Below, one piece after another: positions 204-8,104 of a stretch of DNA of 8,193 nt; position 1 is the first letter of the stretch; each line of letters opens with the position of its first letter. The translations under genes and the position numbers were made by a program. The notes under the pieces are model-generated. The model ran no database searches, was not told where the DNA came from, and worked only from the letters and a program-made list of their open reading frames with translations. Origin of the DNA: Candidatus Scatomorpha stercorigallinarum (GTDB lineage: Bacteria > Bacillota_A > Clostridia > Oscillospirales > Oscillospiraceae); contig DVOV01000063.1 in NCBI GenBank assembly GCA_018713375.1, positions 1 through 8,193 of the forward strand, written 5' to 3'.

Positions 204-1460
204 ATGTCTAACACCAAAAGCAACAAGAACAGCGCCTACAGCTGGCTTGTCCTCATCATGATCACCCTCTGCTACACCTGCACGTTCTTCAGCCGCTTTG
301 TGTGGTCGCCCGTCATGAGCGAAGCGGCCGGCGACATCGGCATGACGATGAGCCAGGCCGGCGGCCTCATGAGCGCTTTCTATTTCGGCTATCTGATACT
401 GCAGATACCCGCCGGCATCGTCGCCGACCGTATCCGCGTAAAGTACCCCATGTTCATCTGCATGGTCCTCATCGCCGGCTCCACCTGGCTGATGAGCAGC
501 GACATCGTCAGCAGCTACACCTCCGCTTACGTGGTCCGTTTCATGGGCGGCTTCTTCAGCGGCACCATCATGGCCTGCGCCTCCCGCCTGCTGTCCAACT
601 ACTTTGAGGCCAAGGTGCGCGGCATCGCCTTCGGCATCCTGCTCGCCTCCCCCTCCCTCGGCACCCTGCTCGCCAACCAGATCGGCCCGCGCGTGCTCGA
701 GGCTTCCGGCTGGCGCGTCACCTTCCAGGTCTGCGCCATCATCATCCTCGTGATCGGCGTCCTCGCCGTGGTGCTCATCCGCGAGCCCAAGGCCGAGCCC
801 ATGCCGGCCAACGCCCCCAAGAGCAGCCTGCTCGACGGCCTCAAGAACTACTTCTCCAACAAGCAGCTCATCCTGCTCTCCATCGCCGGCTTCCTCTTCA
901 TGGCTGTCCCCACCGGCTATTCCACCTGGGCCAACCAGTTCATGACCGGCGCCGCCCCCGCCGGCGGCGGCCTCAGCTCTGTTGACGGCGGCACCATCGT
1001 CACCTGCTACGCCGTGGCCTCCGTCATCGGCTCCATGTCCTCCGGCTTCATCGGCAAGAAGTTCAACTGGAACCGCAAGTACCTGATCATGGAGATCTAC
1101 ATCGCCATGGCGATCTTCCTCTTCATCTTCGGTATGCAGCGCAGCTTCACCGGCCTGCTCATCACCTCCATCCTCTTCGGCCTCGTGAGCTGCTTCTCCT
1201 CCAGCCACATCACCACCTGGGCCGTGAACATCGGCGGCAGCAAGTACGCCGCCACCACCACCGCCACCCAGAACCTGCTGCTGCAGGCCAGCAACGTCAT
1301 CTTCCCCACCGTCGCCGGCTCCATCGTTGACGGCGCCACCGTGGACGGCGTTGTGTCCTCCTACATGGGCGTCTGGTACATGTACAGCGCGCTGCTCGTC
1401 GTGGCCTCTATCGTCATGATATTCACCAGCAAGAAGTCCGCCGCCGAGTCCATGCAGTAA
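204..1460 (+). CDS. MFS transporter, probable substrate importer for the operon
   Basis: This 418-residue major facilitator superfamily permease is of normal family length with about 12 hydrophobic segments; the first is near residues 13-32. The loop between helices 2 and 3 carries the MFS signature as AGIVADRIRVK (residues 70-80, with Asp75-Arg76). The RGIAFG stretch at 139-144 and GWRVTF at 169-174 are the usual landmarks around helices 4-6. The loop after residue 194 (REPKAEP) matches the central cytoplasmic loop joining the two six-helix halves. The style resembles anion:cation symporter or CynX/NarK-like members, but the substrate cannot be read from the sequence. It is first in the operon, with 36 bases before the [2Fe-2S] subunit gene, so it most likely imports, or exchanges product for, the molybdoenzyme substrate. 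The ATG at 204 has only a modest ribosome site; the protein's N-terminus (MSNTKSNKNS, then helix 1) looks complete. Confidence 0.9.
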   Translation: MSNTKSNKNSAYSWLVLIMITLCYTCTFFSRFVWSPVMSEAAGDIGMTMSQAGGLMSAFYFGYLILQIPAGIVADRIRVKYPMFICMVLIAGSTWLMSSDIVSSYTSAYVVRFMGGFFSGTIMACASRLLSNYFEAKVRGIAFGILLASPSLGTLLANQIGPRVLEASGWRVTFQVCAIIILVIGVLAVVLIREPKAEPMPANAPKSSLLDGLKNYFSNKQLILLSIAGFLFMAVPTGYSTWANQFMTGAAPAGGGLSSVDGGTIVTCYAVASVIGSMSSGFIGKKFNWNRKYLIMEIYIAMAIFLFIFGMQRSFTGLLITSILFGLVSCFSSSHITTWAVNIGGSKYAATTTATQNLLLQASNVIFPTVAGSIVDGATVDGVVSSYMGVWYMYSALLVVASIVMIFTSKKSAAESMQ

Positions 1461-1496: not shown

Positions 1497-2018
1497 ATGA
1501 AGAATCGAGTAGAACGCATCATCACCCTGCGCGTCAACGGCAAGGAGTACGAGCTCCCCATCGGCACCGCCCAGGGCCAGGTGCCCCCGCAGGAGACGCT
1601 CGCGCACACGCTGCGCGACCGCCTGCTGCTCACGGGCACGAAGGTCGCCTGCGATGAGGGCGCGTGCGGCTGCTGCACCGTCATCATGAACGGTGAGGCA
1701 GTAACGAGCTGCATGACCTTCACCTGCGACTGCGACGGCGCCGATATAACCACCATCGAGGGCCTGGCCGACGCCACCACCGGCGAGCTCAGCGGCCTTC
1801 AGCAGGCATTCCTCGATAATGTGGGCTTCCAGTGCGGCTTCTGCACTCCCGGCATCATCATGAGCGCCGAGGCCCTGCTCCGCCGCAAGGAGTACCCCAC
1901 CGAGGAAGAGGTCCGCGAGGCCCTCTCCGGCAACCTCTGCCGCTGCGGCACCCACTATAGCGCCGTAGAGTCCGTTATGGCCTACGTCGAGCAAAGGAGG
2001 AAGGCAAACAATGACTGA
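1497..2018 (+). CDS. [2Fe-2S] subunit of xanthine dehydrogenase-family hydroxylase
   Basis: This 173-residue small electron-transfer subunit belongs to the molybdenum hydroxylase family (XDH/CoxS/HcrC type). Residues 8-75 form the plant-ferredoxin-like domain, with Cys52, Cys57, Cys60 and Cys72 in the CxxxxCxxC...C arrangement for the first cluster. Residues about 85-165 form the helical domain, with Cys113 and Cys116 in FQCGFCTPG and Cys148 and Cys150 in NLCRCG for the second. These two clusters pass electrons from molybdopterin to the flavoprotein. The N-terminal segment between NGKEYEL and the ETLAHTLRDRLLLTGTK helix is a few residues longer than usual. The start is supported by AAGGAGA at 1484-1490, six bases before ATG. 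The gene overlaps the large-subunit gene by eight bases, so translation is probably coupled. The family assignment is firm; the substrate is unknown. Confidence 0.96.
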   Translation: MKNRVERIITLRVNGKEYELPIGTAQGQVPPQETLAHTLRDRLLLTGTKVACDEGACGCCTVIMNGEAVTSCMTFTCDCDGADITTIEGLADATTGELSGLQQAFLDNVGFQCGFCTPGIIMSAEALLRRKEYPTEEEVREALSGNLCRCGTHYSAVESVMAYVEQRRKANND

Positions 2019-4305
2019 AATGCGTCACATCGGCCGCGAGACCAAGCGCATCCTGGGCGAGGACATCCTCACCGGCAAGGCCATGTACACCGGCGACTTC
2101 CACCCGGCCGGAATGCACTACGGCAAGATCCTGCACAGCCCCTATCCGTTTGCCCGCATCAGGAGCATAGACTACTCCCGCGCCATGGCCATGCCCGGCG
2201 TCAAATGTGTCGTCACCCACGACGACATTGACCCCGACCTGAGCATCAACAACGGCTTCACCCCGCCGCGCCACCCCAACGTGCTGGACGAGTACGTCCG
2301 CTTCGTGGGCGACGCCGTGGCCCTGGTCGTGGCTGAGACCGAGGACATCGCCGAGGAGGCCTGCAAGCTCATCGACGTGGACTACGAGGTGCTCACGCCC
2401 GTGTTCAACATGGACGACGCCCTGAAGCCGGACGCCCCCCAGCTCTACAAGGTCTTCCCGGGCAACATCGCCCCCCACAAGCAGAATCTCAACTTTGAGA
2501 CCGGCGACATCGAAAAGGGCTTCTCCGAGGCCGACTATGTCGTCGATATCACCACCGGCATGGACAACGGCCAGAACCCGATGCCCCTTGAGGCTCCCGT
2601 GATAGTGGCCGAGTGGAAGAACGACACGCTCGACCTCATTGCCTCCTGCGCCGCCCCCGCCTACTGCCAGCAGAACGTGGCCTCCTCCATGAACCTGCGC
2701 TATGAGCAGGTGCGCATCATGGCCCCCGCCGTCGGCGGCTCCTTCGGCAGCAAGCTCTACAGCGGCAACGTACAGGTGCTCGTGCTCGCCGGCCTGATGG
2801 CCATGAAGGCCCATGTGCCCGTCATGCTGCGCTACACCCGCGAGGAGCACCTCTCCTTCCACCAGAACCGCATGTCCACCAAGGCCCACATCAAACTCGG
2901 CCTGAAGAAGGACGCCACCGTCACCGCCGTGGAGATGCGCCAGTACTCCGACGCCGGCTACTGCGCCAGCACCCAGGAGTTCATGATGGCCGTCGGCACC
3001 AACAGCCTTATCCACCTCACCAAGACGGAAAACAAGAAATACGACGGCGACGTCGTCGTCACCAACCACATGTGCTCCGGCTCCTTCCGCGGCTACGGCT
3101 ACCTGGAGAGCACCACGCTGCTCTCCCGCGCCATCTTCGCCGGCTGCGAGAAGTTGGGCATCGACCCCGTCGAATATCTCCGCAAGAACGCTCTTACCAA
3201 GGGCGAGCATTTCTTCAACGCCAACGCGGCCCCGCACTTTGAGCAGGTCAACGCCGTGTTCGACTGGAGCCACGTCGTCGAAGAGAGCGCCAAGGCTTTC
3301 GGCTGGCATGACAAGTGGAAGGGCTGGGGCGTCCCCACCTGGACGAGCCCGGACGGCCGCTATGCCCGCGGCGTGGGCGTGTTCTCCGCCGGCCATGCCG
3401 ACACCGGCGGCAAGCCCTCCAACGCCAGCGTCACCCTCACTGGCCTCGGTGGCGTGTATGTCAACACCGTCATGGTCGACTTCGGCGCCGGCACCCGCGA
3501 GGTCATGCAGAAGGTCGCCGCCGAGGCACTGAACATGCCTCTCGAGAACGTGCGCCTCTCCCCCGCCGACACCCAGGCGGCTCCCCCCGACTTCGGCTCC
3601 ACCGGCTCCCGCTCCACCTACTGCGGCGGCATCTGCGTCAAGCGCGCCTGCGACGACATCCTGCGCCAGATCGGCGAGCGCGCCGAGGCCAAGCTCGGCA
3701 TCCCCGCCGCCGAGGTCCGTTTCGGCAACGGCTTCGTGTGGCAGGAGGGCAACCCCGATAAGAAGTGGCCCCTCTTCCCCTTCATCATGGGCAAGGTGGA
3801 CGGCATCACCGGCGTCGGCCATCACAACGGCGTCGATAACTCCACCATCTACCAGATCCAGTTTGTGGAGATCGAGGTGGACAAGGAACTCGGCACCATC
3901 AAGGTCCTCGACCACTTCTCCGGCGCGGACGCCGGCCGTATCGTCAACCCGCTCTCTGCCAAGAACCAGATGGAGTCCTTCTTCGCCGGCATCGACATCG
4001 CCTGCATGGAGGAGACGGTCTACGACCCGCACGACTACCGCGTGCTGAACGCCAACAACATCGACTACAAGATGCGCATGTTCAACGAGGTCCCCCATCA
4101 CTCCGACCTGGTGCTCGAGAGCTGCAAGAGCGCCGATTCGCCCTATCCCTTCGGCGCGAACGGCATCGGCGAGCCGACCATCGCCCCGGGCGGCCCGGCC
4201 ATCACCATGGCCCTCTACAACGCCTGCGGCATCATGCTCGAGAGCTATCCCTACACCCCGGGCAAGATCCTGGCGGCGCTCAAAGAAAAGGAGGAGAACG
4301 CGTAA
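2011..4305 (+). CDS. Molybdopterin-binding large subunit, xanthine dehydrogenase family
   Basis: This 764-residue catalytic subunit has the length of XdhA/HcrA-type separate large subunits. Residues 13-130 form the small N-terminal a/b-hammerhead domain (LTGKAMYTGD, then VRFVGDAVALVVAE). The rest is the molybdopterin-binding region. Landmarks are GGSFGSK (242-248), SGSFRGYG (356-363), TGSRST (531-536), NPLSAKNQ (646-653) and GANGIGE (715-721), whose Glu721 matches the catalytic base of the family. There is no CoxL-type AYRCSFR loop, so CO dehydrogenase is excluded. The reaction is hydroxylation of a heterocycle, aldehyde or purine-like substrate with water as oxygen source, or the reverse reductive reaction. 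Unusual points are Ser in place of the third Gly in GGGFG, YLEST replacing the common GPQ after FRGxG, and MESF where MEGG is usual. AGGAGG at 1995-2000 supports the ATG at 2011. The stop overlaps the next start by one base. Without an aligned reference I cannot choose between xanthine, nicotinate-like or aromatic substrates. Confidence 0.95.
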   Translation: MTEMRHIGRETKRILGEDILTGKAMYTGDFHPAGMHYGKILHSPYPFARIRSIDYSRAMAMPGVKCVVTHDDIDPDLSINNGFTPPRHPNVLDEYVRFVGDAVALVVAETEDIAEEACKLIDVDYEVLTPVFNMDDALKPDAPQLYKVFPGNIAPHKQNLNFETGDIEKGFSEADYVVDITTGMDNGQNPMPLEAPVIVAEWKNDTLDLIASCAAPAYCQQNVASSMNLRYEQVRIMAPAVGGSFGSKLYSGNVQVLVLAGLMAMKAHVPVMLRYTREEHLSFHQNRMSTKAHIKLGLKKDATVTAVEMRQYSDAGYCASTQEFMMAVGTNSLIHLTKTENKKYDGDVVVTNHMCSGSFRGYGYLESTTLLSRAIFAGCEKLGIDPVEYLRKNALTKGEHFFNANAAPHFEQVNAVFDWSHVVEESAKAFGWHDKWKGWGVPTWTSPDGRYARGVGVFSAGHADTGGKPSNASVTLTGLGGVYVNTVMVDFGAGTREVMQKVAAEALNMPLENVRLSPADTQAAPPDFGSTGSRSTYCGGICVKRACDDILRQIGERAEAKLGIPAAEVRFGNGFVWQEGNPDKKWPLFPFIMGKVDGITGVGHHNGVDNSTIYQIQFVEIEVDKELGTIKVLDHFSGADAGRIVNPLSAKNQMESFFAGIDIACMEETVYDPHDYRVLNANNIDYKMRMFNEVPHHSDLVLESCKSADSPYPFGANGIGEPTIAPGGPAITMALYNACGIMLESYPYTPGKILAALKEKEENA

Positions 4306-6665
4306 TGAGATATCACGACTACGTGGCCCCCGAGTCCCTCGAGGAAGCTTCCCAGCTCCTGCAGGAGGACGGCACGGTCATCAGCGCCGGTGCCACCGAC
4401 CTCATCGGCGAGCTGAAGGGCAACATACTCACCACCCAGCCTAAGAAGGTCGTCAGCCTGCGCAACATCCCCGGCCTGCGCGGCATCGAGGTCAAGGAAG
4501 ACGGCCTGCACGTCGGCGCCATGACCACCCTCGCCGAGATCGAGCGCAGCGAGGCCGTCAACAGCGGCTGGAAGGCCCTGGCCGACGCGGCGCACTCCGT
4601 AGCCACCCCCAACCTGCGCAGCACCGCCACCATCGGCGGCAACATCTGTCAGGACATCCGCTGCTGGTACTACCGTTACCCGGACCAGATCGGCGGGCGC
4701 ATCAACTGCCTGCGCAAGGACGGCGCGCTCTGCTACGCCATGCGCGGCGAAAACCGCTATCACTCCATTTTCGGCGCCGAGAAGGTCTGCGGCACGCCCT
4801 GCTCCGGCGGCTGCCCCGCCGGCACCGATATCCCGGCCTACATGGAGCAGATCCGCGCCGGCAACTGGGACGCCGCCGCCCGCATCATCATGCAGGTGAA
4901 CCCCTTCCCGATGCTCACCAGCCGCATCTGCCCGCATCCCTGCCAGGAGAACTGCAACCAGAACCACTACGGCGACAGCGTCGCCATCCACTCCGTGGAG
5001 CGCACCCTGGGCGACTACATCCTGGACAACATCGACAAGTACTACCCCGCCCCGGCCGTTGAGACCGGCAAGAAGATCGCCGTCATCGGCGCCGGCCCCT
5101 CCGGCCTCGCCGCCGCCTGGTATCTGCGCCGCGCCGGCCACACCGTCGTCGTCTACGACCGCATGGAGAAGATCGGCGGCGTCCTGCGCTACGGCATCCC
5201 CCACTACCGCCTGCCGCGCGATATCATCGACCGCGTGGCCGCCGCGCTGGAGGGCATGGGCGTCCAGTTCCGCATGAACACCGAGGTCGGCAAGGACATC
5301 ACCGTCGAGCAGCTCGTTGAGCAGAACGACAACGTGTTCTTCGGCACCGGCGCCTGGAAGCAGCCCGTCATCGGCCTCACCGGCGAGGAACTGACCGAGT
5401 TCGGCCTCAACTTCCTGGTCGAGGTCAACACCTACCTGCAGAAGGCCATCGGCAACGAAGTGCTGGTCTGCGGCGGCGGCAACGTCGCCATGGACGTGGC
5501 CCTCACCGCCAAGCGCCTGGGCGCCAAGACGGTCAAGCTCGTCTGCCGCAAGCGCAAAGAGGACCTCTCCGCCGCCCCCGAGGAGCTCGCCCGCGTCATT
5601 GAAGAGGGCGTCGAGATCTACGACTGCCGCGGCCTGCGCAGCGTCATCACCGACGAGAGCGGCAAGGTCACCGGGCTGCACACCGTGCGCTGCTACTCCG
5701 TCCGCGGCGCGAACGGCAAGTTCACCACCAACTACGACGAGAACGACACCCTGGACATCTCCGCCGACTACATCATCATGGCCACCGGCCAGAAGGTCGG
5801 CCTTGACTTCCTGGGCGAGAAGCTGGGCGCGCAGCTCAAGACCGAGCGCGGCCTGATCGGCGTCGACAGCCAGACCTACGCCACCAAGTACCCCGGCGTG
5901 TACGCCGGCGGCGACGTTGTCACCGGCCCGGACATCGCCATCAGGGCCATCCACGCCGGCCGTGTGGCCGCCCGCAGCATCAACCGCAGCCTCGGCGGCG
6001 AGGAATTCCCCACCGTCCCCGGCACCCGTACCAAGACCTTCGACACCCTGGGCGTGGCCGAGACGAAGATGCATCTGCAGCCCGAGCTGCCCGTTTCCGA
6101 GCGCAGCCTCACCGCCGAGGACACCGGCTCCTACCCCGAGGGCGTGGCCAACGAGGAGGCCAACCGCTGCTTCAACTGCGGCTGCCTGGCCGTCAACTCC
6201 AGCGACGTGGCCACCATGCTCGTCGCCTACCGTGCCACGGTCAAGACCAACATGCGCACCCTCTCCGCCGCCGAGCTGCTGGCCTCCCGCACCCGCATCA
6301 AGGACGTGCTCAAGACCGGCGAGATCGTCACCGAGATCATCGTCCCCAACCAGGGCGAGGGCACCGTGGCCGCCTATGACAAGTACCGCATCCGCGACAG
6401 CGTGGACTTCGCCGTCACCGCCGTGGCCAGCGTGTACACCGTCAAGGACGGCGTGGTGAGCGACGCCAGCATCGTGCTGGGGGCGTGCGCGCCCGTGCCG
6501 CACGAGGCCACCGCCGCCGAGGAGTTCATCACCGGCAAGGCGCCCACGAAGGAAAATGCGAAGAAGATGGGCGAGCTGGCTCTGCTGGGCTCCATCCCCC
6601 TCGAGCACAACGCCTACAAGATCGACATGACCCGCGTCATGGTCGAGCGCAGCCTCGAGTTCTGA
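4305..6665 (+). CDS. Fused flavoprotein: XDH FAD subunit with inserted GltD-like NAD(P)H oxidoreductase
   Basis: This protein has 786 residues, against about 260-330 for a normal FAD-binding subunit. Residues 1-112 are the PCMH-type FAD domain (SAGATDLIGELK at 27-38, TIGGN at 109-113). Residues 115-152 resemble the [4Fe-4S] loop of 4-hydroxybenzoyl-CoA reductase beta subunits (Cys115, 120, 135, 143). Residues about 157-245 are a GltD-type Fe-S domain (Cys162, 166, 170, then Cys209, 213, 217). Residues 257-285 hold the Rossmann FAD motif GAGPSG, 386-417 the nucleotide motif GGGNVAMD followed by VCRKR, and 531-560 the closing flavin motif GVYAGGD. After RCFNCGC (621-627) the FAD subunit resumes with NSSDVATMLVAYRATV, and its C-terminal domain runs to 786 (YDKYRIRD at 691-698). 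The module thus sits inside, not beside, the FAD subunit. It should carry electrons between the [2Fe-2S] subunit and NAD(P); the basic residues after GGGNVAMD hint at NADPH. AAGGAGGAG just upstream supports the start. E. coli YgfM/YgfK are separate proteins of similar kinds. Confidence 0.93.
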   Translation: MRYHDYVAPESLEEASQLLQEDGTVISAGATDLIGELKGNILTTQPKKVVSLRNIPGLRGIEVKEDGLHVGAMTTLAEIERSEAVNSGWKALADAAHSVATPNLRSTATIGGNICQDIRCWYYRYPDQIGGRINCLRKDGALCYAMRGENRYHSIFGAEKVCGTPCSGGCPAGTDIPAYMEQIRAGNWDAAARIIMQVNPFPMLTSRICPHPCQENCNQNHYGDSVAIHSVERTLGDYILDNIDKYYPAPAVETGKKIAVIGAGPSGLAAAWYLRRAGHTVVVYDRMEKIGGVLRYGIPHYRLPRDIIDRVAAALEGMGVQFRMNTEVGKDITVEQLVEQNDNVFFGTGAWKQPVIGLTGEELTEFGLNFLVEVNTYLQKAIGNEVLVCGGGNVAMDVALTAKRLGAKTVKLVCRKRKEDLSAAPEELARVIEEGVEIYDCRGLRSVITDESGKVTGLHTVRCYSVRGANGKFTTNYDENDTLDISADYIIMATGQKVGLDFLGEKLGAQLKTERGLIGVDSQTYATKYPGVYAGGDVVTGPDIAIRAIHAGRVAARSINRSLGGEEFPTVPGTRTKTFDTLGVAETKMHLQPELPVSERSLTAEDTGSYPEGVANEEANRCFNCGCLAVNSSDVATMLVAYRATVKTNMRTLSAAELLASRTRIKDVLKTGEIVTEIIVPNQGEGTVAAYDKYRIRDSVDFAVTAVASVYTVKDGVVSDASIVLGACAPVPHEATAAEEFITGKAPTKENAKKMGELALLGSIPLEHNAYKIDMTRVMVERSLEF

Positions 6666-6666
6666 G

Positions 6667-7077
6667 ATGGCCACCGATAAAGAGCGCGTGCTCGCCTGGG
6701 CCTCGCGGGAGGGGGAGTTCCCCCTCCCCTCCGGGCCGGACGCCACCGGCACGGCCATCGAGCCTGACTGCGGCGACCACCTCACGATGGGCTTCAAGAC
6801 GCACCGCGAGGTCATAACGGAGATCGGTTTCGACCTGACGAAGAGCGCCTGCCCCCCGACCCGCGCGAGCGCCGTCTGCGCCGCACACCTGGCGAAGGGC
6901 AAGGCCGTGATGGCCGCTTACCTGACCGTCACCGCCAAGGCGATAGCCAAAGAGCTGAGCGCCGACGGCGAGCTCGACGAGGGCCACGTACACTGCGCGC
7001 TGATGGCCGAGCTGGCCTTCAAGCGCGCCCTGGCCGCCTACTCCGCGCGCAAGCGCGCCGAGCACGAGGCACAATAA
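6667..7077 (+). CDS. IscU/NifU-N-like Fe-S cluster scaffold protein
   Basis: This 136-residue protein carries the ligand set of the IscU/NifU N-terminal fold. Cys35 and Asp37 lie in PDCGDHLTM (IscU ACGD), Cys62 in KSACPPTRASA (IscU FGCGSAIASS position), and His109-Cys110 in HVHCALMAELAFKRAL (IscU LHCSVLAEDAIKAAL). Cys71 is an extra cysteine. The match of spacing and of the C-terminal helix is good, though overall similarity is low and the LPPVK chaperone-binding motif of IscU is replaced by GELDEGHVHC. It would assemble Fe-S clusters and hand them to client proteins. It starts two bases after the flavoprotein stop codon without its own clear ribosome site, so it is probably translated by coupling. 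Its place at the end of the operon suggests service to the cluster-rich enzyme encoded upstream. No cysteine desulfurase or Moco-maturation gene (XdhC, MobA-like) is in the window. Confidence 0.82.
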   Translation: MATDKERVLAWASREGEFPLPSGPDATGTAIEPDCGDHLTMGFKTHREVITEIGFDLTKSACPPTRASAVCAAHLAKGKAVMAAYLTVTAKAIAKELSADGELDEGHVHCALMAELAFKRALAAYSARKRAEHEAQ

Positions 7078-7083
7078 AAAGCG

Positions 7084-7115
7084 AAGCGCCGCGGCTAAAG
7101 CCGCGGCGCTTTTTT
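7084..7115. terminator. Bidirectional intrinsic terminator between convergent genes
   Basis: A 12-bp stem (AAGCGCCGCGGC, loop TAAA, then its complement) runs from 7084 to 7111, with a run of six T at 7110-7115 on the plus strand. It begins seven bases after the scaffold gene's stop. Read on the minus strand, the same hairpin is followed by TTCGCTTTTT, a weaker but plausible tail for the hydrolase transcript, whose stop codon touches the T-run. Confidence 0.92.
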
Positions 7116-8053
7116 CAGCAGCCGATGTCTTTGAGGAATCCCTTCACAGCCTCCGTATAGGCTTCTTCGTCCACGAGGAAGCTCATCGCGTGGTCCGCGC
7201 CGGGCACTGTCAGCAGCCGTTTGGGCGCCGTACAGGCGGCGTAGTTTTCCCGGGACATATCGCAGGGCACGAAGCTGTCCGCCTCGCCGTGGATGAAGAG
7301 CACCGGCGCTCGGCAGCGCCGCAGGGCCTCCGGCGCGGAGCATGCGCGGGTATCGAATCCCCCCAGTATGCGCGCGCTCGCGCGCAGCAGCGGCAGGCTG
7401 AGCGCCGGCGGGATGTGCACGCTGCGGCTGACATGCTCCATTATGGCCTCCGGCGAGGTGTAGCCGCAGTCGGCGATGATGCCTTTTACGTTCGCCGGCA
7501 GGCGGTCCGCCGCCATCAGCACCGTGGCCGCGCCCATGGAAACGCCGCCGAGGATGATGTCCCTGTCCGGCCCGAAGCGGTCAAGTATGTACTGTATCCA
7601 GTCCAGGCAGTCATAGCGCTCGCGCACGCCGAAGGTTATGGCGCGCCCGGCGCTCTCGCCGTGCGCGCGCTGGTCGGCCGCCAGGACGTCGATGCCCAGT
7701 TCCCCCGCCAACTTCAGCATCCCGCAGCCGTCGCGCAGCGGCCAGCTGTGATAGCCGTGGAAAAACAGTATCACCGGCCCCTCCCCGGACGCGGAAAAGC
7801 GGAAATACTGCCCGCTGAGCGCGAGCGCGTCCCGCGAACGGACGCCCACGTGCTCGCCTTTCAGTTTTCGCGCCGCGCCGTAGAGCTCGTCCAGCTTCCG
7901 CTGCAGCTCCGGCCTCCTGGAGCGCACCTCCGGCGGCAGGCAGTCCACCCTGCCCGACGTCCCCGGCGCAAACACGAACGCATACACGCCTCCCAGCGCC
8001 CCCGCGGCTACCGCGGCCGGCGCGCCCAGGGCGGCGAGCACCTTTTTTGCCAT
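7115..8053 (-). CDS. Alpha/beta hydrolase, YqkD-like, with N-terminal membrane anchor or signal
   Basis: This 312-residue serine hydrolase of the alpha/beta fold has the oxyanion-hole HG motif in FFHGYHSW (97-104), nucleophile Ser172 in GGVSMGAA (169-176), likely acid Asp259 in HGEADSFVP (255-263) and His288 in GADHAMSF (285-292). Residues 3-30 form an Ala/Gly-rich hydrophobic stretch after Lys3-Lys4, a membrane anchor or signal peptide, so the enzyme probably acts at or outside the membrane. The helical cap around 200-240 resembles Bacillus YqkD and related uncharacterised esterase/peptidase-like hydrolases; the substrate is unknown. The chosen ATG (8051-8053) has AGGAGGT about six bases upstream; an in-frame ATG 11 codons earlier (8086) lacks this and would put the ribosome site inside the gene. 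It converges on the molybdoenzyme operon and is separated from it by the terminator, so no functional link to that operon is implied. Confidence 0.9.
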   Translation of the reverse strand: MAKKVLAALGAPAAVAAGALGGVYAFVFAPGTSGRVDCLPPEVRSRRPELQRKLDELYGAARKLKGEHVGVRSRDALALSGQYFRFSASGEGPVILFFHGYHSWPLRDGCGMLKLAGELGIDVLAADQRAHGESAGRAITFGVRERYDCLDWIQYILDRFGPDRDIILGGVSMGAATVLMAADRLPANVKGIIADCGYTSPEAIMEHVSRSVHIPPALSLPLLRASARILGGFDTRACSAPEALRRCRAPVLFIHGEADSFVPCDMSRENYAACTAPKRLLTVPGADHAMSFLVDEEAYTEAVKGFLKDIGC

Positions 8054-8072
8054 TGTTACCTCCTGAAAGCAC

Positions 8073-8104
8073 GCGGCCCGCTGCACAGCAATGCAGCGGG
8101 CCGC
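8073..8104 (-). terminator. 13-bp GC hairpin between two minus-strand genes
   Basis: GCGGCCCGCTGCA pairs perfectly with TGCAGCGGGCCGC around a six-base loop. It lies 18 bases after the stop of the upstream minus-strand gene and about 20 bases before the hydrolase start. On the minus strand it is followed by GTGCTTTC, a poor U-tract, so it may be a weak or attenuating terminator or an mRNA-stabilising structure. On the plus strand no T-run follows it. Confidence 0.5.

What the first reader, a model, noticed from the sequence alone, without database searches (positions are those of the whole stretch)
4305..6665. GltD-like oxidoreductase module inserted inside a molybdenum-hydroxylase FAD subunit
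The FAD-binding subunit is split: residues 1-~156 and ~628-786 form one normal XDH/HcrB-like subunit, and residues ~157-627 are a complete GltD/NfnB-style module (Fe-S domain, GAGPSG flavin site, GGGNVAMD nucleotide site, GVYAGGD closing motif, RCFNCGC). Known molybdenum hydroxylases carry one flavin; this one should carry two, with several Fe-S clusters between them. E. coli encodes similar pieces as separate YgfM and YgfK. The architecture suggests direct NAD(P) coupling and possibly flavin-based bifurcation or confurcation. Related fusions may exist in databases under generic names, but I know of no characterised one.
Basis: partly seen in the sequence, partly recalled or inferred. Interest (0 to 1): 0.85.

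Follow-up and report, generated by a model that had tools for sequence, protein, structure and literature searches.

The report
Molybdenum enzyme with built-in NAD(P)H module
A gut bacterial molybdenum enzyme carries a complete NAD(P)H-oxidising module spliced into a cluster-binding loop of its flavin subunit; it looks like a hard-wired reductase of an uncharacterised kind, and the module seems to have been exchanged between enzymes during evolution.

Summary
One frame (4305-6665, 786 aa) encodes a xanthine-oxidase-family FAD subunit (residues 1-161 and 627-786; one fold in the AlphaFold model) with a GltD-like module (about 162-626) nested inside. 138 aligned rows (109 clusters at 90% identity) keep the design.

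Refined: the module sits in the [4Fe-4S] loop known from 4-HBCR and PaoB, directly before the loop's last cysteine (C627). Twelve predicted ligands of three [4Fe-4S] clusters are present in 137-138 of 138 rows; C625 and C627 should bind neighbouring clusters. This predicts a wire NAD(P)H, FAD, three [4Fe-4S], second FAD, two [2Fe-2S], Mo. I favour substrate reduction. The nucleotide-discriminating pair is LE in 124 of 138 rows (NADH-like), RK in the window (NADPH-like).

New: insert and flanks have conflicting trees, and the same insert lineage occurs in a second molybdoenzyme group (Mo subunit 26-27% identical): it behaves as an exchangeable cassette.

Bifurcation is neither supported nor excluded. 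Substrate, direction, cofactors and distances are untested. Ten library searches found no description; nearest characterised relatives are 4-HBCR, PaoABC, Ucdh and the StnC/NfnABC module.

The parts
204..1460 (+). MFS transporter, perhaps the substrate importer of the operon
   Evidence: PF07690 143 bits; the NCBIfam hits are all below cut-off; an MFS gene stands at the same place in E. asparagiformis L006
1497..2018 (+). [quoted passage not shown]
   Evidence: PF01799 and PF00111; 4zoh_C 150.4 bits
2011..4305 (+). molybdopterin-binding large subunit
   Evidence: PF02738, PF20256, PF01315; best PDB match 4-HBCR alpha 1rm6_A 233.8 bits
4305..6665 (+). fused FAD subunit with nested GltD-like module (786 aa)
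4305..4787 (+). N-terminal part of the FAD subunit, residues 1-161, with FAD motifs AGATDL (28-33) and TIGGN (109-113) and loop ligands C120, C135, C143
4788..6182 (+). GltD-like insert, residues 162-626: Fer4_20, FAD Rossmann, NAD(P) Rossmann
6183..6665 (+). C-terminal part of the FAD subunit, residues 627-786 and stop; begins with loop ligand C627
4662..4733 (+). first three predicted ligands of the loop [4Fe-4S] cluster: C120, C135, C143 (fourth: C627 at 6183-6185)
   Evidence: 138 of 138 rows for the three, 137 of 138 for C627 (the gap is P0008); PaoB and 14 fetched unfused relatives have four such cysteines
4800..5000 (+). predicted GltD-type cluster ligands C166, C170, C209, C213, C217, E232
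   Evidence: 138 of 138 rows each; aligned with E. coli GltD
6168..6179 (+). C622 and C625 of RCFNCG, counterparts of the RCxxCG at the start of E. coli GltD, here at the other end of the module
   Evidence: 137 of 138 rows each; comparison
5088..5105 (+). GAGPSG, FAD site of the GltD-like module
5472..5495 (+). GGGNVAMD, NAD(P) site of the GltD-like module
5547..5552 (+). R415-K416, predicted NADPH-type discriminator (LE in most relatives)
   Evidence: LE 124, RK 13, RR 1 of 138; E. coli GltD RR, PreT RE
6667..7077 (+). NifU/IscU-like protein, possibly a dedicated Fe-S scaffold; three cysteines shared with its relatives
   Evidence: PF01592 43.7 bits; NifU_N genes follow the fused gene in L006 and L109; alignment of five such proteins; IscU roles of the cysteines recalled
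7084..7111 (-). 12-pair hairpin with T tail between the converging genes, terminator-like, listed on the minus strand
   Evidence: 6 such sites found, 4.3 expected in shuffles; this one has the longest stem

Best explanation
The operon encodes a transporter, a three-subunit xanthine-oxidase-family molybdenum enzyme and a NifU-like helper. The FAD subunit contains its own NAD(P)H dehydrogenase, inserted in the [4Fe-4S] loop through which electrons are thought to enter 4-hydroxybenzoyl-CoA reductase (entry by the loop: recalled). Inferred path: NADPH (window) or NADH (most relatives) reduces the GltD-type FAD; electrons pass two GltD-type [4Fe-4S] clusters, then the loop [4Fe-4S] cluster, the second FAD, two [2Fe-2S] clusters and the molybdenum, where a substrate, perhaps aromatic or heterocyclic, is reduced. 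Shown: the sequence architecture, one fold for the split subunit in the model, conservation of the predicted ligands and of both FAD motif sets, and the disagreement of insert and flank trees. Inferred: cofactor occupancy, nucleotide choice, direction, substrate class.
For: Nested domains; flanks one fold and insert a GltD fold. The insert lies between loop cysteines 3 and 4; the 12 predicted ligands are kept in 137-138 of 138 rows while C162 is C in 33. RCFNCG followed by C627 puts ligands of two clusters two residues apart. Unfused relatives already have the loop (15 of 22 aligned). A GltD module feeding a linear cluster chain is reported for StnC (PMC10482914, passages). 4-HBCR takes electrons from reduced ferredoxin, and purified Ucdh, another XO-family reductase of gut bacteria, uses NADH (PMC12771579, section 7 and passages). 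RK in the window against LE in 124 of 138 rows, with E. coli GltD (RR; NADPH use recalled) and PreT (RE; annotated NAD(+)) as yardsticks. Some relatives have contexts that fit aromatic acids: UbiD- and UbiX-family genes near one fused operon, a TylF-type methyltransferase gene near another.
Against: I found no activity, cofactor or structure data for any fused member. Direction rests on analogy; oxidising enzymes are the rule in the family. The large subunit is about equally near XdhA (355.8 bits) and 4-HBCR (350.4), far under both cut-offs. The loop is weak in the model (pLDDT about 58-62 at residues 121-140). Two residues are a thin basis for cofactor choice. The aromatic contexts belong to other clades, not to the window's operon.
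Confidence: 0.58

Rival explanations
1. Same wiring, opposite direction: an oxidative hydroxylase that passes electrons from the substrate through the cluster chain to NAD(P)+ at the GltD site.
For: Most characterised XO-family enzymes oxidise purines or aldehydes (PMC3958847, passage); the large subunit scores as high with XdhA as with 4-HBCR; the Stn complex, with its GltD module, is also reported to run towards NADP+ reduction (PMC10482914, passages).
Against: FAD subunits of xanthine dehydrogenases already reduce NAD+ (recalled), so a low-potential module would be needless; the insert sits in the loop associated with reductive electron entry; gut relatives are now shown to act reductively.
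Confidence: 0.25
2. Flavin-based bifurcation or confurcation: one of the two FADs splits or joins electrons between NAD(P)H, ferredoxin and the Mo site.
For: E232 and R302, aligned with the Glu ligand and the FAD arginine of NfnB, are kept in 138 of 138 rows; two flavins and probably low-potential clusters; the four best structural matches of the insert belong to bifurcating complexes.
Against: Glu is also found in E. coli GltD, which is not known to bifurcate; no NfnA-like gene among the six scanned; only one outlet visible; the StnC FAD does not bifurcate.
Confidence: 0.1
3. The module is not in the catalytic path: it serves as a separate NAD(P)H:acceptor oxidoreductase or as structure only.
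For: A shortened paralogue beside two fused genes keeps Fer4_20 and the cysteine motif but has no Pyr_redox_2 or FAD_binding_5 hit, so parts of the module can be lost.
Against: In the full-length rows FAD, NAD(P) and cluster motifs are nearly all kept, and the ligand sets interlock at residues 622-627.
Confidence: 0.05
4. Assembly or frame artefact joining two genes.
For: None found.
Against: Same design in 138 aligned rows, among them loci of a complete chromosome (L006) and a 3-Mb contig (L011) of cultured strains.
Confidence: 0.01

Closest known systems
4-hydroxybenzoyl-CoA reductase (HcrABC, PDB 1rm6)
   Different: No GltD module; ferredoxin is the donor (PMC12771579, passage); fourth loop cysteine at another place (its role as ligand recalled); TIGR03193/03194/03195 cut-offs not reached.
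PaoABC of E. coli and the Methylobacillus aldehyde oxidase (5g5g, 5y6q)
   Same: FAD subunit with the same four loop cysteines, the last before IATHPSD as C627 before LAVNSSD; best structural matches of the split subunit.
   Different: No insert; aldehyde oxidation (named so in PDB and E. coli records); PaoC lies far from the fused group in the Mo tree.
GltD module of StnC / NfnABC (8oh5_C, 9bov_A, 9n5u_A)
   Same: Best structural matches of the insert and best sequence matches, with RCxxCGC at the end of the module; in StnC a linear NADPH-FAD-cluster feed (PMC10482914, passages).
   Different: StnC is joined to NuoG/FdhF-like domains, not to an XO FAD subunit; Lys stands where the fused family has E232 (alignments; K170 of StnC).
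Ucdh, urolithin C dehydroxylase of Enterocloster bolteae
   Same: Gut XO-family reductase driven by NADH; E. asparagiformis, reported to have Ucdh too, encodes three fused enzymes.
   Different: Described with a medium FAD subunit and no mention of a second module; the E. asparagiformis locus that best fits the description has an unfused 288-aa FAD subunit without the loop. That this locus is ucd is inference.
E. coli YgfK / YgfM / XdhD
   Same: GltD-like protein, FAD subunit and Mo subunit encoded at one locus.
   Different: Separate genes; YgfM has no cluster loop; YgfK is longer (1032 aa).

Membership tests
Xanthine oxidase family (molybdenum hydroxylases) | Mo subunit, two-[2Fe-2S] subunit and FAD_binding_5/CO_deh_flav_C subunit | tested here: met
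   flanks form one fold
4-hydroxybenzoyl-CoA reductase | NCBIfam equivalogs TIGR03193/03194/03195 above cut-off | tested here: not met
   153.6 of 257.8, 350.4 of 994.55, 128.8 of 404.55 bits; joined flanks 136.6 with TIGR03195
4-hydroxybenzoyl-CoA reductase | [4Fe-4S] loop in the FAD subunit | tested here: met
   four loop cysteines present, arranged as in PaoB rather than HcrB; the cluster itself was not observed
4-hydroxybenzoyl-CoA reductase | reduction of a hydroxyaryl-CoA thioester with ferredoxin | not testable with these tools
Xanthine dehydrogenase XdhABC | NF043082/043083/043084 above cut-off | tested here: not met
   355.8 of 780, 129.8 of 310, 144.5 of 217 bits
GltD-like (beta-like) modules | Fer4_20 plus FAD and NAD(P) Rossmann domains with ligands for two [4Fe-4S] clusters | tested here: met
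   ligands; fold; the subfamily model NF009410 stays under its whole-protein cut-off (428.3 of 516)
Nfn bifurcating transhydrogenase | NfnA partner subunit | tested here: inconclusive
   none among the six window genes scanned; no whole genome is held
Nfn bifurcating transhydrogenase | Glu ligand of the FAD-proximal cluster | tested here: inconclusive
   E232 in 138 of 138 rows, but E. coli GltD has Glu too
StnC / NfnABC | NuoG/FdhF-type domains and Lys at the proximal cluster | tested here: not met
Ucdh (urolithin C dehydroxylase) | high identity to E. bolteae Ucdh, or urolithin C activity | not testable with these tools
   no Ucdh sequence was at hand; the papers by Pidgeon et al. are not held

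The most novel reading that the evidence does not exclude
A family of two-flavin molybdenum reductases in which a portable NAD(P)H-input cassette has been plugged, as a unit and at one exact site, into the cluster loop of at least two separate molybdoenzyme lineages and exchanged between paralogues, with NADH/NADPH choice changing along the way; and in which the paired flavins confurcate NAD(P)H and ferredoxin electrons to drive low-potential reductions (for example removal of hydroxyls from aromatics) that NAD(P)H alone could not.
Probability: 0.1. Interest if true: 0.9.

Novelty: new variant of a known kind. Interest (0 to 1): 0.6.

Why it matters
Reductive xanthine-oxidase-type enzymes of gut bacteria are only now being found (Ucdh is called the second dehydroxylating member after 4-HBCR; PMC12771579, passage). 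This family would be a set of self-contained NAD(P)H-driven ones, recognisable from sequence, present in cultured species, and needing no external ferredoxin. The exact insertion site suggests how a ferredoxin-dependent design could become NAD(P)H-dependent in one step, and the apparent cassette exchanges give a natural experiment in modular redox wiring. If the relatives act on phenolics they are candidates for unexplained gut transformations.

Tried and rejected
Frame error or misassembly: rejected. 'Flanks are not one subunit': rejected. E. coli YgfM/YgfK as the direct split form: rejected in part. A separate GltD gene beside unfused relatives: a tblastn of the insert over the fetched stretches L012-L053 (42 loci, of unequal length) matched only L017, which shows only a GltD match. 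Plasmids: 725 records match, none covers 80% of the query in one place; the eight listed cover 59-65%, mostly the GltD part. Identifying Ucdh in E. asparagiformis to ask whether it is fused: undecided; the best-fitting locus (order FAD-Fer2-Mo, TylF-type methyltransferase nearby, near-identical Mo subunits in three genomes of that genus) is unfused. Identity to the partial HcrA chain did not settle it (35.7% there, 28.1% for the neighbouring fused enzyme, 39.2% for the unfused L118 enzyme, 32.4% for the window; the paper gives 32.7% for Ucdh). Cluster-to-flavin distances: not measured. A search in another phylum failed and was not repeated. Foldseek's 50 listed rows show only GltD-type chains; the FAD-subunit matches came.

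Counts and dropped rows: one search aligned the window, the 120 listed homologs (of 3354 found) and 17 of 18 loci asked (L108 failed my motif filter: one Gly of GGGN is Arg there). The gap row at 622-627 is P0008; two rows are identical (P0059 and the L011 protein); at 90% identity there are 109 clusters, and all 109 representatives have the 12 ligands, 9 of them RK/RR. These rows are the best-scoring part of a capped list. One search took 38 ORFs from 39 loci (L092, the gene of L108, dropped); its filter asked for a cysteine motif, so its result on C622/C625/C627 is partly circular, and about half of the 38 repeat proteins. The genome surveys scored only the best 2 or 5 candidates of each genome, and three of the listed matches are partial (G543, G465, a second one in G808). 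The group tested on insert data was named from flank and Mo trees, but I had already seen the insert tree. One search used quick trees. My gene picker in scripts is crude; coordinates of neighbours are approximate.

Full report
WHAT IS THERE. The window holds a compact plus-strand set: MFS transporter (204-1460), two-[2Fe-2S] subunit (1497-2018), molybdopterin subunit (2011-4305), the fused FAD subunit (4305-6665) and a NifU/IscU-like protein (6667-7077); the last four overlap or nearly touch. A 12-pair hairpin (7084-7111) lies between them and a converging alpha/beta hydrolase. The nearest genome records are Candidatus Scatomorpha (L001, 85% over the whole fused protein). No whole genome is held for the window. 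The same order with transporter and NifU-like gene is seen in E. asparagiformis L006.

WHERE THE INSERT SITS. 4-HBCR and PaoB carry an extra [4Fe-4S] loop in the FAD subunit (ligands recalled; for 4-HBCR the extra cluster is in the title of the structure paper as cited in PMC6274584, PMC3958847 and PMC10420851). PaoB reads RC..PC..GC..EAC-IATHPSD. Of 22 unfused FAD subunits aligned, 15 have this loop (14 fetched ones and PaoB); 7 lack it: E. coli XdhB and YgfM and five of E. asparagiformis. The window reads RC120..NC135..LC143..[insert]..C627-LAVNSSD, so the insert ends just before the fourth loop cysteine. The insert's own end is RC622FNC625G, the counterpart of the RCLSCG near the start of E. 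coli GltD and of the RCxxCGC that ends the module in 9bov_A and 9n5u_A. C166, C170, C209, C213, C217 and E232 fill the remaining positions. Across 138 rows C120, C135, C143, C166, C170, C209, C213, C217 and E232 are invariant; C622, C625 and C627 are present in 137, the gap being the truncated record P0008; C162, which the eye might take for a ligand, is C in only 33. All 109 representatives at 90% identity have the 12. A further 38 ORFs from 39 loci have them too, with overlap and a partly circular filter. Assignment of residues to clusters is inference from homology; no cluster has been seen.

HOW IT PROBABLY WORKS. C625 and C627 are two residues apart and should hold neighbouring clusters, so the GltD-type clusters and the loop cluster should lie within easy electron-transfer range. 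FAD motifs of both halves are kept. This gives a linear wire from NAD(P)H to molybdenum with two FADs and five clusters. [quoted passage not shown] StnC is a worked example in which NADPH, FAD and a cluster chain feed another flavin (PMC10482914, passages). 4-HBCR takes electrons from reduced ferredoxin and Ucdh from NADH (PMC12771579, section 7 and passages). I therefore favour a reductase; direction is not shown. Bifurcation is neither needed nor excluded.

NADH OR NADPH. The pair at 415-416, just after the second strand of the NAD(P) fold, is LE in 124 of 138 rows, RK in 13 (the window included) and RR in 1; by 90% clusters 9 of 109 begin with R. E. coli GltD (NADPH, recalled) has RR and PreT (annotated NAD(+)) has RE. 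Both fused proteins of the Scatomorpha genome G004 (L055, L061) have RK although one is only 47% identical to the window's. I read this as change from NADH to NADPH, perhaps repeated; it rests on two residues and no tree of this character was tested.

DISTRIBUTION. A match at E 1e-150 or better is found in 20 of 200 genomes of the family of the Scatomorpha genome G004, in 4 of 391 of its class and 4 of 398 of its phylum, G004 counted each time and a few matches partial, and, by my reading of the list, in 10 of 17 genomes of the genus of E. asparagiformis, which itself has three. Among the 120 listed database homologs some bear names: Angelakisella massiliensis, Enterocloster lavalensis, Tannockella kyphosi, a Synergistaceae MAG. 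NCBI names are generic (FAD-dependent oxidoreductase, FAD binding domain-containing protein); JGI's automatic names for P0086 and P0110 join both halves (NADPH-dependent glutamate synthase beta subunit-like oxidoreductase/CO/xanthine dehydrogenase FA..., cut off in the list).

THE INSERT BEHAVES AS A CASSETTE. (a) In an insert tree the 25 fused inserts sampled are one group against 21 other GltD-like proteins or domains (100/100, and in 100% of 200 bootstrap trees). (b) In the flank tree they are not: L134 and L138, two of the fused proteins with a loop three residues shorter (12 of 176 rows), join nine unfused subunits of environmental bacteria (96/97; 0% of 200 bootstrap trees have one change), and one clade of all fused flanks is rejected (log-likelihood 14.4 lower, p-AU 0.012). 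(c) The Mo subunits picked in 7 of 10 such or similar loci fetched are 26-27% identical to the window's, and the six put in a tree join that unfused group (100/100). (d) For the window's own protein the flanks and Mo subunit go with Angelakisella, Enterocloster and Hungatella, the insert with P0029, P0075, P0106 and L004; insert data reject the flank grouping (86.9 log units, p-AU 0.0006). Identity to P0059, its flank kin, is 66, 48, 59% over N-flank, insert, C-flank; to P0075 50, 61, 36%. Which line exchanged its cassette is open: P0029 and P0009 are near the window in both trees, so the exchange may have happened in its relatives. Roots are midpoints, so an ancient fusion with repeated precise loss cannot be excluded for (b) and (c); (d) needs an exchange or a strong rate artefact. 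No breakpoint test was run.

CONTEXT AND SUBSTRATE. The large subunit is far below the NCBIfam cut-offs. Near one fused operon of E. asparagiformis lie UbiD- and UbiX-family genes (above cut-off; the hydroxyarylic acid decarboxylase models VdcC and VdcB match below theirs). Another lies beside a TylF-type methyltransferase gene and an unfused XO-family operon that fits the published description of the urolithin C dehydroxylase cluster (inference). In G014 a fused gene is followed by acyl-CoA-ligase-like and CoA-transferase-like genes (below cut-off). These hint at aromatic acids, but none is the window's own operon.

PRIOR KNOWLEDGE. I searched the open library ten times and found no description of this fusion. 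A 2018 survey of molybdoprotein fusions lists GltD as a new fusion for the DMSO reductase family and not for the xanthine oxidase family (PMC6147048, Table 4 in passages). Papers by Pidgeon et al. on the Enterocloster enzymes are not held, so I cannot say what they show about the FAD subunit. The kinds of module are known; their nesting, the shared ligand motif and the exchanges I did not find described.

Noticed in passing
L104:4645-6336 (-) and L111:13336-14913 (+): Directly downstream of a full fused gene, a second, shortened version (about 563 and 525 aa) keeps Fer4_20, RCLNC(G/S)C and CO_deh_flav_C (in L111 just under the cut-off) but has no FAD_binding_5 or Pyr_redox_2 hit; perhaps an electron-transfer or structural paralogue.
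   Followed up: partly
window 6667-7077: NifU/IscU-like protein encoded right after the fused gene, as in four other loci, with three shared cysteines; may be a dedicated Fe-S scaffold for this cluster-rich enzyme.
   Followed up: partly
L101 (E. asparagiformis, G001:C1:3029001-3049000): An unfused FAD-Fer2-Mo operon (288, 163, 787 aa), a TylF-type methyltransferase gene and a fused operon lie within about 12 kb; the unfused operon is a candidate for the urolithin C dehydroxylase.
   Followed up: partly
L106 (G014:C15:62000-78000): In one genome of that genus the 288-aa FAD gene is not followed by its partner subunits but by other genes that by eye look like a mobile element.
   Followed up: no
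L050:3218-6004 and L051:3138-5948: Environmental relatives with the two-[2Fe-2S] and Mo subunits in one chain (about 930 aa) and a NifU-like gene on the other strand nearby.
   Followed up: no
window 7115-8086 (-): Alpha/beta hydrolase converging on the operon; no sign that it belongs to it.
   Followed up: no
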